Source: Myroides oncorhynchi
GTDB taxonomy: Bacteria; Bacteroidota; Bacteroidia; Flavobacteriales; Flavobacteriaceae
Assembly: GCF_020905415.1 (NCBI RefSeq)
Contig: NZ_JAJJMP010000001.1
Coordinates: 2,119,501 to 2,183,500 of the forward strand
Length of the DNA stretch: 64,000 bases
Reading direction: 5' to 3'
Shown: positions 10,689 to 63,822 of the stretch, piece by piece
How the letters are laid out: every line of letters begins with the position of its first letter
How positions within the stretch are numbered: position 1 is the stretch's first letter
The notes under the pieces: generated by a model
Told to the model about the DNA's origin: nothing
Seen by the model: the letters and a program-made list of their open reading frames with translations, nothing else
Databases searched by the model: none
Made by a program: the position numbers and the translations under genes

Positions 10689-11422
10689 AAGTAAGGGTAA
10701 CTAACTTGAGTTAAATAAAGACCTTTTCCAGGAACAGAGAAGCCTGCTTGGCCTCTGTCTTTGTTCTCTATTATTGTTCTGAAGTCATCTAATGTTATTT
10801 TTTCTAAGCCTACACTGACTAAAGTACCGACGATAGCTCTAACCATGTTTCGCAAGAATCTGTTAGCAGATACTGTGAAGACAAGTTTATTATCAGGTAG
10901 TACTGTCCAGTAGGCTTTATATATGGTACAGTTAAAAGTAAACACATCAGTATGCGTCTTAGAGAAACACTCGAAATCTTCGTACTCAAATAAGATTTGA
11001 GCAGCCTGATTCATCAGTTCTACATTAAGAGGTCTGAAGTGATAGTAGCTTCCAGCATTGCAGAAAGCATCTTTAAACTGGTGTATGTGATAATCATAAG
11101 TACGTGCTGTAGCATCAAAACGGGCGTGTGCATCATCTGCCACGAGGTGTATATCAAAAACAGCAATGTCTTCAGGTAAATAAGAATTCATTCGTTTGAT
11201 TAAAGAATCCTTATCAAAGGGCATATCGTAATCGAAGTGTGCATACATCTGTCTAGCGTGTACTCCAGCATCAGTTCTACCTGCTCCTACTAGTTCTATA
11301 GGGGTACGCAGTAGAGTGGAAATAGCCTTCGTAAGGACTTCCTGTACTGATATAGCATCTGGTTGTAACTGCCATCCGTGATAATGCGTTCCATTATATG
11401 CAAATTCTAAAAAATATCTCAA
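10685..11422 (-). CDS. truA: tRNA pseudouridine(38-40) synthase
   Basis: TruA isomerises uridines 38, 39 and 40 in the anticodon arm of many tRNAs. The 245-residue protein has the catalytic motif GAGRTDAGVHARQM with the nucleophilic Asp51, and RFLRNMVRAIVGTLV in the second half. The length is standard. The start at 11422 is supported by the conserved N-terminal RYFLEFAYNGTHYHGWQ. It is the first gene of a two-gene unit with the ABC exporter. The region upstream is the long gene-poor stretch that holds a dispersed repeat, and no clear promoter was found next to the gene. Confidence 0.95.
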   Translation of the reverse strand: MRYFLEFAYNGTHYHGWQLQPDAISVQEVLTKAISTLLRTPIELVGAGRTDAGVHARQMYAHFDYDMPFDKDSLIKRMNSYLPEDIAVFDIHLVADDAHARFDATARTYDYHIHQFKDAFCNAGSYYHFRPLNVELMNQAAQILFEYEDFECFSKTHTDVFTFNCTIYKAYWTVLPDNKLVFTVSANRFLRNMVRAIVGTLVSVGLEKITLDDFRTIIENKDRGQAGFSVPGKGLYLTQVSYPYL

Positions 11423-11804
11423 TGTAATTCTCTTTGTTTTGTAAAAGGCAAATATACTTTAAAAACGCCATTAGGCAGATTATGTTATTATAAAATTAGG
11501 AATTAGTAACTAGTAATCGGAGATGAGTTTCCGTTCTTGATAACTCTCCTATATAGTCTCTAGATTTTGAGTAATTAAAAAAAAGCAGTTCACTTTTTTT
11601 GTTTTATCTTCATTATAGCTTTGATTACCTTCAAAATAATCATAGTATATCCAACTTTTTTTTGGAAAAACAACGCATTTTAGCTCTAAATAGTACATTT
11701 TAAAAAACACAGTACATTTTTCTTAAACTACAAGAACACTTAAGTTGTTTTTTTTTGAGTTTGTTAATTTGTTTTTGGTTGATCAAGTTTTTTTTTAGAA
11801 CACG

Positions 11805-11935
11805 TCTCAATCGCAATGGGAATAAGTATCTATCCTGAGTTGCTCGACAGTTTCTCGAGTATTCGCCGTAGTTAGTCTCTCTGAGAAAGATTAGTCGAAC
11901 AGTTGTTCTTGTATTGATGGGTAATCTACGACTAG
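11805..11935 (+). repeat. 131-bp dispersed repeat, copy A
   Basis: This segment and 63461-63591 align end to end without gaps, with 116 of 131 positions identical by my count. Weaker similarity extends about 45 bases upstream (TTGTTAA, a T run, TTG). It is not coding: stops occur in every frame and the differences show no three-base rhythm. Internal symmetry includes the stem TGCTCGA / TCGAGTA with a 7-base loop at positions 37-57 of the unit, kept in both copies. A TAGTCG near position 88 faces CGACTA at positions 125-130. It could be a structured RNA, a MITE-like element or a protein-binding repeat. I do not recognise it. Confidence 0.8.
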
Positions 11936-12036
11936 TTGAGTATTGGAATTAAGCAGAAGGAGAATGATGGGAGGAGAGAGAGGATTGTTTGTGGACATAC
12001 ACGTCACGTCCTGTTGGTACGTAATGTTGGTGTAGA

Positions 12037-18179: not shown

Positions 18180-18253
18180 GGCTACGTGGCGCAACTGAAT
18201 AGCGCATCTGATTACGGCTCAGAAGGTTGCAGGTTTGAATCCTGCCGTGGTCA
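18180..18253 (+). tRNA. tRNA-Arg (anticodon ACG), copy 1
   Basis: A 74-base cloverleaf: acceptor GGCTACG / CGTGGTC (two G:U pairs), D-arm GCGC / GCGC, anticodon stem TCTGA / TCAGA with loop TTACGGC (anticodon ACG at 18214-18216), and T-arm GCAGG / CCTGC with loop TTTGAAT. CCA is not encoded. ACG should be deaminated to ICG to read CGU, CGC and CGA. Confidence 0.95.
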
Positions 18254-18305
18254 CTAAGTTTTATGAAAGTAAAACTGTGATAATAAAGAATAAATAAGGA
18301 ATTAC

Positions 18306-18379
18306 GGCCGAGTGGCGCAACTGAATAGCGCATCTGATTACGGCTCAGAAGGTTACAGGTTTGAATCCTGTCTCGGTCA
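18306..18379 (+). tRNA. tRNA-Arg (anticodon ACG), copy 2
   Basis: A near-duplicate of copy 1, 52 bases downstream. The core from the D-arm to the anticodon arm is identical. The acceptor is GGCCGAG / CTCGGTC and the T-stem ACAGG / CCTGT. The changes keep pairing, so both copies should be functional. Confidence 0.95.
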
Positions 18380-45282: not shown

Positions 45283-45839
45283 TTAGAAGATGTATTTGTT
45301 GTTGAACTCGATTTCGTACGTTGTCTATTATAATGCTTGATATGGTGTTAGAAAATTCATTTTAGTAATTGAATTACTCTGGTTAAAAGTACTTTATTTT
45401 AAAAGAACTATATCAGTTAAAAAATCAATTCATCTTTTGAAGAATAAAAAGCATAAATAAGTGTACAGTTAGAACAGTTATGGTAGGACGAGACATAGTG
45501 GTCGGCTAGTGATCGCATAGTGGTCGCATAATTTTAGCCTATTTTAATACGACCACTATGGTATCACTATCCCATAATATTACTATCATGCTGTACCTTC
45601 TTAGTAAGTGAATAGTTGGAGAAAGAAGTTTAAGGTTATTGAGAGCCTGTATTTAGAGATTTTGTTAGAGAGCGATATCTTATTTGAACGTAATTATTAG
45701 CGGTATAGTAGGTGTTGTCTTATCCCTGATTATAGCTAATTATGCTCTATAGCTTCTAGTTTGTTATGGTTTATGACTATAGGATTTGATATATAGAGGT
45801 TAAAATCTTTTCTTTGGAACAACTAAACTCTTTAACTAG
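45283..45839. other. Intergenic region with iteron-like cluster
   Basis: About 560 bases without a supported gene between divergent genes. The only clear structure is the repeat cluster at 45494-45570. I found no convincing promoter, though one is needed on each side. Confidence 0.55.
45494..45570. repeat. Cluster of direct and inverted TAGTGRTCG repeats
   Basis: CATAGTGGTCG occurs at 45494-45504 and 45516-45526, with the variant TAGTGATCG between them (45507-45515). After a 23-base AT-rich spacer the exact inverse CGACCACTATG follows (45550-45560), then TATCACTA (45562-45569), the inverse of TAGTGATA. The block therefore has three direct units facing two inverted ones, and can also fold as an 11-bp hairpin. 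Confidence 0.75.
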
Positions 45840-63048: not shown

Positions 63049-63460
63049 GCCATTATTTTTAACGCTGTCTAGGACAAATGTCTGTCCATTATCAGTAAAC
63101 AATACTCTTAAAGAAATTGAATCCTACTCATTTACTCTCTTGCTCTAAGATATAATAAAGTTCACTTAAAATACACTATCGCTATTACGACTTTACTTAC
63201 ACTTGAGTCATATTGATATGTCAAATACCATCTTATCAAAAACACACACCTCTTTTTTTAATTTATAGCTTTTTGAGCTGTTTTAAAGCGTATAACGACC
63301 TTTTATTTCCTCTTTTTTTAAAAACATGATCTGTTTTGGATGTTTTTGACTAAAAAACTAAAAAATAGAAGGTTCTTTTTTTGACTTGTTAAAATATTAA
63401 TATCTTCATTTTTAGATTGTTAAGTTGTTTTGTGTCTATTGTGCTTTTTTCTTGTACCCC
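63049..63460. other. T-rich region before the second dispersed repeat
   Basis: About 410 bases without a supported gene. It contains GGACA-AATGTC-TGTCC (about 63072-63087), close behind the EamA -7 box. From about 63245 there are many T runs, which resemble the tract before repeat copy A. Confidence 0.55.
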
Positions 63461-63591
63461 TCTCAATCCCAGTGGGAATAAGTATCTATGCTAAGTTGCT
63501 CGACAGTTGCTCGAGTATTCGCCGTAAATAGTCGCTCTGAGAAATATTAGTCGAACAATGCTTCTCGTATTGATACGTAATCTACGACTAG
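63461..63591 (+). repeat. 131-bp dispersed repeat, copy B
   Basis: The partner of 11805-11935, same length and orientation, 15 differences. It lies about 430 bases upstream of, and divergent from, the EamA gene, much as copy A lies about 380 bases upstream of and divergent from truA. The TGCTCGA / TCGAGTA stem and the TAGTCG...CGACTA pairing are conserved. A T-rich leader precedes both copies. Confidence 0.8.
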
Positions 63592-63822
63592 CTTATAATT
63601 GAGAGTAATATATGATAGATAATTGCCTGTTAATGTATGTTGGAGTTGTGGTCTTGGTTCGTATTGTGATTTATAGAAAAAGATATACCAGTACTTTATT
63701 CTACTATTTAGAAAGAGGCATGAGCTTATAGTAGCTGTTTGTGTTGTTAATAGTAGTATTTTGCTTTAGTGAGAAATGGTATGTTGAGGTAATCTAGATG
63801 GATATTCTATTTAAGAAAAAAT
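63592..63822. other. Intergenic region after repeat copy B
   Basis: About 230 bases with no supported gene. I see nothing recognisable apart from a partial repeat of the GTTGAGGT element (63782-63790) that recurs in the following hairpin. Confidence 0.45.

What the first reader, a model, noticed from the sequence alone, without database searches (positions are those of the whole stretch)
11805..11935. Unrecognised 131-bp dispersed element, two copies 51.6 kb apart
Seen directly: 11805-11935 and 63461-63591 align over 131 bases without a single gap, with 15 substitutions by my count. It is not coding, since stops interrupt all frames and changes do not favour third positions. Absence of insertions over the whole length suggests that overall length or structure is under selection. 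Two copies in 64 kb suggests many in the genome. Candidates are a structured RNA, a non-autonomous mobile element or a chromosome-organising protein site. The conserved stem TGCTCGA/TCGAGTA with a 7-base loop that varies at one base favours an RNA or DNA hairpin.
Basis: seen in the sequence. Interest (0 to 1): 0.75.

Follow-up and report, generated by a model that had tools for sequence, protein, structure and literature searches.

The report
Myroides 11-base-repeat hairpin repeat family
The 131-base match belongs to an old family of roughly 430-base non-coding elements scattered between the genes of Myroides-type bacteria; older copies are built as a hairpin of 11-base repeats, and the two copies here are worn-down members of one branch of the family.

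Summary
In detail: 11805-11935 and 63461-63591 align over 131 bases without a gap, with exactly 15 substitutions.

The 131 bases are the core of a unit of about 430 bp with a T/A-tract arm on the left. The genome belongs to the Myroides lineage (inferred). Search tools of increasing reach list 9, 18 and 51 rows in it. A hairpin model matches 8 of 398 genomes of the genus sample and 1 of 395 (the own one) of an order sample with 108 genera.

Older copies carry inverted arrays of an 11-bp unit, and some copies differ by 11 bp. In 26 of 34 DUF6266 loci an element lies upstream on the same strand.

The window's copies fold no better than shuffled sequence; covariation is slight; Rfam has no match. 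At two sites N17-2 holds a different hairpin cassette in place of this element.

Best reading: a REP/MITE-like, mostly vertically kept interspersed repeat. It is not a proven structured RNA, and mobility is inferred only.

The parts
11805..11935 (+). Copy c1: conserved core (the finding), a degenerate member of the 11-bp dyad family
   Evidence: 15 of 131 differ from c2; R2 match 11783-11966, E 1e-36; R3 match 11838-11936, E 0.00028
11583..11804 (+). Copy c1: T/A-tract arm. Left edge at about 11583, where 89% identity to the N17-2 flank ends
   Evidence: alignment to other copies from about 11573; N17-2 flank matches window 11369-11582
11936..11980 (+). Copy c1: right extension shared with other copies; most pairs end at 11952-11980, two reach about 12008-12025
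63461..63591 (+). Copy c2: conserved core
   Evidence: R2 match 63438-63620, E 1.8e-43; R3 match 63494-63592, E 2.8e-8
63238..63460 (+). Copy c2: T/A-tract arm (left limit from pairwise alignments; one pair reaches about 63166)
45490..45589 (.). Separate hairpin in the window made of another 11-bp unit (TAGTGGTCGCA-like). Similar build, not shown to be homologous
   Evidence: 26-nt arms, 85% complementary; highest 11-bp autocorrelation found in the window's non-coding DNA, 0.57

Best explanation
The finding is the core of an old interspersed, non-coding repeat of about 430 bp found only in the Myroides-type lineage among the genomes searched. Shown: a T/A-tract arm, a short conserved block, and a dyad that in older copies consists of inverted arrays of an 11-bp unit; copies that differ by 11 bp; tens of copies per genome; many copies at the same place in two species; a branch, to which both window copies belong, whose hairpin has largely decayed. 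Inferred: it works like a REP- or MITE-type non-autonomous element. In progenitor copies the long hairpin, as DNA or RNA, is what an unknown trans-acting factor recognises or what replication slippage and template switching act on; copies are now and then spread or exchanged between intergenic sites, are then inherited in place and decay. The solo copies of the window need have no present function.
For: Copy number and spread. Same places in two species: 11 of 18 copies share at least one flank, a twelfth by flank search. Unit of about 430 bp. 11-bp period is the highest of shifts 5-23 in older (0.44), derived (0.37) and other-species copies (0.48); 11-bp differences between copies. Dyad in 51 older copies: 84.0% standard pairs against 42-58% when slid. 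Strong hairpins in other species: median z -3.7, 11 copies. Derived copies are about as close to paralogs as to orthologs, older ones are not. Not plasmid- or phage-borne as far as searched.
Against: No clean empty site with a target duplication and no terminal repeat was found; at c1 and c3 the other species hold different DNA, not an empty site. No enzyme is linked: DUF6266 does not look like a transposase. Shuffling within columns keeps 82.1% pairing, so most of the dyad signal is conserved sequence, and RNAalifold finds no pair in the 51 older copies. The link to DUF6266 genes (26 of 34) suggests that some copies are part of a gene's 5' region.
Confidence: 0.55

Rival explanations
1. The element is the 5' control region (promoter, or leader with hairpin) of a dispersed DUF6266 gene family; solo copies are relics left after the gene was lost.
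For: An R2 element row lies 118-483 bp upstream on the same strand in 7 of 9 DUF6266 loci of G000, 15 of 19 of N17-2 and 4 of 6 of G171 (compared by hand; three of the seven in G000 have E between 0.002 and 0.007). DUF6266 units align from about 600-650 bp before the start codon to about the gene's end. L197 keeps only residues 285-352 of the gene.
Against: Only 13 of 83 element loci have DUF6266 in the DNA held, and several of these loci are only about 1.4 kb long. Element rows far outnumber the genes. Other DUF6266 genes lack the element (for example L234, L237 and L241 align over the gene only). The best conserved branch, which includes the window's copies, has no gene in the flanks searched except in L113 and L114.
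Confidence: 0.2
2. A multicopy structured RNA (trans-acting or processed) made from the dyad; period 11 fits one turn of an A-form helix.
For: In older copies G-T pairs outnumber A-C pairs (167 to 79) when read on the strand of DUF6266. RNAalifold on 40 mixed copies gives -10.0 (+) and -9.5 (-) against -0.7 +/- 1.0 and -0.4 +/- 0.5 for shuffled columns. Other species: median z -3.7. Changes on both sides of pairs exceed all 500 column shuffles (20 cells against 9.8).
Against: No consensus fold in the nine-copy alignment beyond -5.6 or in 51 older copies. Pairing is 84.0% against 82.1% after shuffling. Window copies fold like shuffled sequence. No Rfam match at E <= 1 in five loci with copies. 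The strand preference disappears in other species (+ lower than - in 4 of 11).
Confidence: 0.15
3. An array of protein-binding sites spaced by one helical turn (chromosome organisation, partition or nucleoid binding).
For: In older copies a motif like GGAnAATA recurs at 11-bp spacing in both orientations. In G000 no row at E <= 0.001 lies between 2.75 and 4.01 Mb, the terminus side by GC skew; in G171 a gap from 1.79 to 2.61 Mb spans the skew turn.
Against: The unit sequence differs between species. Origin half: 29 of 41 and 20 of 32; Rayleigh p about 0.011 and 0.098, with gaps noticed before testing. Two rows at E 0.04 (3.55 and 4.07 Mb) are outside that threshold. No consistent strand bias once diverged copies are included.
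Confidence: 0.08
4. The element is the end of, or a derivative of, the IS1595-family insertion sequence found beside copy c9.
For: The weakest of the nine DNA matches (c9) runs into an IS1595-family transposase gene.
Against: Comparison of the IS copies shows an IS of about 950 bp with inverted ends and 8-bp target repeats whose flanks are unrelated; at c9 it sits inside an element, with element sequence on both sides.
Confidence: 0.02

Closest known systems
REP / BIME palindromic repeats and their RAYT transposases (PMC2817692: start of abstract seen in a search listing; PMC12306157: listing and one passage seen)
   Same: Short palindromic, extragenic, many copies, kept in place for long times.
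   Different: This unit is about 430 bp with a T-tract arm and an 11-bp modular dyad of about 100 bp. No RAYT was looked for. The word Myroides does not occur in PMC12306157.
Enterobacterial RU-1/2/3 and MITE-like small mobile sequences (PMC2759123, PMC2229807: start of abstracts seen in listings)
   Same: Size of 100-450 bp, intergenic, non-coding, no transposase of their own.
   Different: No terminal inverted repeat or target duplication was shown here, and no parent transposon was found.
Stem-loop sequence families of bacterial genomes (PMC2267715: start of abstract seen in a listing)
   Same: Families of repeated non-coding sequences able to fold.
   Different: Whether any of their families matches this one was not checked.
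11-bp iterons of type II plasmid centromeres, parC/ParR (recalled; PMC9426499 and PMC3387028 seen only in a listing)
   Same: Array of units spaced by about 11 bp.
   Different: Here arrays are inverted, chromosomal and in tens of copies; parM and parR genes were not looked for.

Membership tests
Known structured RNA family (Rfam 15) | Match to a covariance model | tested here: not met
   Gathering threshold on the window: only two tRNAs; E <= 1 on five loci with copies: none; E <= 5 on 16 older loci: no convincing family match at the element (hits are one tRNA gene and sub-threshold miRNA-type or leader models on hairpins).
Structured RNA in general | Compensatory base changes beyond column composition | tested here: inconclusive
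   84.0% against 82.1% shuffled, covariation score 0.183 against 0.154, no shuffle reaches it; yet RNAalifold finds no pairs.
MITE / non-autonomous transposon | Terminal inverted repeats and target-site duplication at an empty site | tested here: inconclusive
   Sites c1, c3, L053 and L054 compared with N17-2 and in part G171: different or decayed DNA, no clean empty site.
MITE / non-autonomous transposon | A parent element with a transposase and the same ends | tested here: not met
   The IS1595-family IS beside c9 is an insertion into the element. DUF6266 is not transposase-like. Other transposases were not tested.
REP / BIME | Extragenic palindrome in many copies | tested here: met
   51 rows in G000 at E <= 0.05, both strands counted, several elements hit on both strands; dyad in older copies.
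REP / BIME | RAYT gene in the genome | not tested
   No search for tyrosine (Y1) transposases was made.
Chromosome-organising or partition site | Bias in position or strand along the origin-terminus axis | tested here: inconclusive
   29 of 41 and 20 of 32 in the origin half; Rayleigh p about 0.011 and 0.098; origins set by sampled GC skew.
Chromosome-organising or partition site | A binding protein | not testable with these tools
   Needs a pull-down or ChIP experiment.

The most novel reading that the evidence does not exclude
Myroides keeps a class of intergenic cassettes whose build (T-tract arm plus inverted arrays of an 11-bp unit) is preserved while the unit sequence turns over between species, both arms changing together, and cassettes of different families replace one another at intergenic sites. 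At c3, and directly upstream of truA at c1, N17-2 has a different hairpin cassette where G000 has this element. In G171 the same truA-to-peptidase interval holds a third hairpin of 11-bp units (GCATAGTGGTC), but a 271-aa gene lies between it and truA. This would mean selection on, or a copying mechanism acting on, hairpin shape rather than sequence, perhaps connected with the DUF6266 genes.
Probability: 0.2. Interest if true: 0.75.

Novelty: new variant of a known kind. Interest (0 to 1): 0.5.

Why it matters
It adds an interspersed repeat family, not found in print in the searches made here, to a genus of medical interest (tet(X)-positive Myroides, PMC12195491: listing and passages seen). It links that family to an uncharacterised gene family, DUF6266. 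If cassette exchange is real, the family gives a natural series of hairpins with the same period and different sequence, in which selection on shape and on sequence could be told apart.

Tried and rejected
IS1595 parent: rejected; the IS is an insertion in c9. Short conserved peptide on the minus strand (MDILKV-like): rejected by eye; the frame is not kept in c2, c6, c7 and c8. Known RNA family: no convincing match. Plasmid or phage origin: no match with one copy as query; five viral contigs with an exact 23-base pattern were not followed up. Weak single R1 rows in G070 and G043 were taken as chance because the sequence looks coding by eye; no gene finding was done. DUF6266 as a transposase: the model (mean pLDDT 84.1, pTM 0.74) gives fibronectin-III-like matches, none at E <= 0.001; PHROGs only E 0.066 or worse; no NCBIfam hit at E <= 0.1; no solved structure at E <= 1 by sequence, one protein tried. 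General excess of 11-bp periodicity in non-coding DNA: not seen in the window or in random stretches of G000, and not clear in G171, so the period is a property of the family and of a few other hairpins.

Rows dropped or misplaced: second hits of one locus (90 to 84 rows). In one search, 36 copies picked by eye. Alignment A7 uses 51 of the 61 older stretches; the ten left out are five that are shorter by about a unit (L188, L190, L193, L195, L197), three intermediate ones (L050, L051, L054) and two very diverged ones (L198, L213). The 'derived' group of 21 was set by the motif TCGAGTATT and so includes L058, which is otherwise of the older type. The middle of the output was cut.

Papers: no paper of the held library contains DUF6266. 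Among the 20 listed one has the word Myroides (PMC12195491); there 'repetitive' and 'intergenic' occur only with ERIC-PCR and a reference title. Searches list no Myroides repeat family.

Full report
CHECK. The two stretches align over 131 bases with no gap and exactly 15 substitutions. Of twelve frame readings of the two copies, eleven hold stops. The genome (G000, 4.16 Mb, 2 contigs) holds nine DNA matches, seven besides the two of the window. They lie between different genes. A DNA search of 59 relatives found none.

ORGANISM. A pattern scan of named genomes gave 39 loci, seven of them from Myroides sp. N17-2; the rest come from unrelated organisms and were not followed up. The linked DUF6266 protein of G000 is 86% identical to one of Myroides sp. 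N17-2. I therefore place the window in the Myroides lineage (inference).

EXTENT. Oriented alignment shows similarity running about 220-300 bp to the left, through runs of T and A, and 17-86 bp to the right of the 131 bases. Alignment of 36 older copies picked by eye shows the same kind of arm in front of them (the middle of that output was cut). In the window the left edge is at about 11583, where 89% identity to the N17-2 flank ends.

COPIES AND SPREAD. A sequence-only model of nine copies (R1) lists 18 rows in G000 and 17 in N17-2. In a genus sample it matches 4 of 398 genomes: G000, N17-2, G171 and one weak single row in G070. A model of 40 copies (R2) lists 51, 58 and 38 rows in G000, N17-2 and G171 at E <= 0.05, both strands counted. 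A hairpin model of 51 older copies (R3) matches 8 of 398 genomes of the genus sample at E <= 1e-4 and 1 of 395, the own genome, of an order sample with 108 genera. The larger searches use stricter filters and score few candidates per genome, so weak copies may be missed. Of the 18 R1 copies of G000, 11 share at least one flank with a copy in N17-2, and a twelfth (L058) does by flank search. At c1 and c3 no R2 match exists in the N17-2 and G171 DNA held. The family is therefore old and in large part inherited in place.

ANATOMY. Older copies show tandem units such as TGGACAATA(NN) on the left and TATTCTCC(NNN) on the right of a centre. Autocorrelation over shifts 5 to 23 is highest at 11 in older copies (0.44), in the derived group that includes the window's copies (0.37) and in eleven copies from five other genomes (0.48). 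Copies with 11-bp gaps include c6 and c8 and L188 and L195. A 19-pair dyad in 51 older copies has 84.0% standard cells against 42-58% when slid; shuffling within columns still gives 82.1%, though none of 500 shuffles reaches 84.0%, so pairing rests mostly on conserved sequence with a slight excess of covariation. RNAalifold gives no pair on these 51, but gave -10.0 (+) and -9.5 (-) against -0.7 +/- 1.0 and -0.4 +/- 0.5 for shuffled columns on 40 mixed copies. Fold z-scores on the + strand: older median -1.4 (n = 51), derived -0.7 (n = 21), other species -3.7 (n = 11); the window copies 0.5 and -0.3, and -1.8 and -1.5 on the other strand. In other species the unit differs, and both arms fit each other, for example CCTTGGACATT against AATGTCGAAGG and AATCTCCAAGG in G124. 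A block like CCY-AGTAAATA-nRGG before the array is visible by eye in 4 of the 11.

LINKED GENE. DUF6266 (PF19781) follows an R2 row on the same strand at 118-483 bp in 7 of 9 loci of G000, 15 of 19 of N17-2 (one miss is cut by a contig end) and 4 of 6 of G171 (compared by hand). In L230, counted as a miss, alignment to other units still begins about 650 bp before the gene. Thirteen of 83 element loci show the gene in the DNA held; in L197 only its C-terminal part remains. The predicted structure resembles fibronectin III domains, with no match at E <= 0.001.

SITE TURNOVER. At c3 the flanks are conserved with sharp edges; G000 has this element, N17-2 a different hairpin cassette of about 1.1 kb, and G171 an unrelated spacer about 200 bp shorter than that of G000. 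At c1 N17-2 carries a relative of the same second cassette (74% over 495 bp between the two). In G171 the interval between truA and the peptidase gene holds a hairpin of 11-bp units GCATAGTGGTC, beyond a 271-aa gene. The window has a similar hairpin at 45490-45589. At the L107 locus, matched by one flank, N17-2 has a derived copy while G000 and G171 have older copies within a different spacer. Site L054 has a homologous but decayed or different spacer in the other two genomes. Derived copies are about as close to orthologs (0.77-0.86, six pairs) as to the best paralogs in the same genome (0.72-0.85); five older G000/N17-2 pairs and c9 against G171 are closer to orthologs (0.71-0.93) than to paralogs (0.57-0.62). 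Three comparisons with G171 go the other way: c6 0.56 against 0.82, N113 0.50 against 0.81, N116 0.53 against 0.57. This fits copying of the derived form between sites; duplication before the species split would fit most of it as well.

POSITION. Sampled GC skew puts the origin of G000 near 1.1-1.2 Mb and the terminus near 3.3-3.5 Mb. No row at E <= 0.001 lies from 2.75 to 4.01 Mb; one at E 0.037 does (3.55 Mb). In G171 the skew turns near 2.0 Mb and a gap from 1.79 to 2.61 Mb spans it. Rayleigh p is about 0.011 and 0.098 on lists taken by hand. I do not build on this.

CONTROL. A crude scan for periodic non-coding stretches shows no general excess at 11 bp in the window or in 160 kb of random G000 stretches; in the window the hairpin at 45490 stands out (0.57) and the two finding copies do not reach the threshold of 0.42.

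VERDICT. Real; ordinary in kind (an interspersed palindromic repeat family), unusual in build (an 11-bp modular dyad with a T-tract arm, often upstream of DUF6266). Function and mobility are not shown.

Noticed in passing
L010:2928-3821 (G000:C1:1412313-1413203) and other places in G000: IS1595-family insertion sequence of about 950 bp with 14 full-length copies at 96-100% protein identity, inverted ends and 8-bp target repeats; one copy sits inside element c9. A more distant IS1595-type group (28-29% identity) has six further places, one beside copy c4.
   Followed up: partly
L260 (N17-2, c1 site) and L267 (N17-2, c3 site): A second dispersed hairpin cassette with T-tracts, 74% identical between the two sites, occupies the places where G000 has this element.
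   Followed up: partly
window 45490-45589: Hairpin of another 11-bp unit (TAGTGGTCGCA-like) between genes; a similar hairpin lies in G171 (L255, about position 2960).
   Followed up: partly
L106, L110, L119, L157, L183 and others: A further dispersed repeat of about 100 bp (GAGCTAATGGAAG..., 70-92% identical) lies near many of the fetched loci.
   Followed up: no
G171 samples L329 about 7020 and L331 about 5389: Two stretches that look like 11-bp arrays with other units (ACGGACTCATA-like and GTTGAAGAAGT-like).
   Followed up: no
L113 and L125 left flanks: Tandem repeat arrays with many offset self-matches beside DUF6266 loci, and repetitive C-terminal tails in DUF6266 proteins.
   Followed up: no
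window 18180-18379: Two tRNA genes on the + strand.
   Followed up: no
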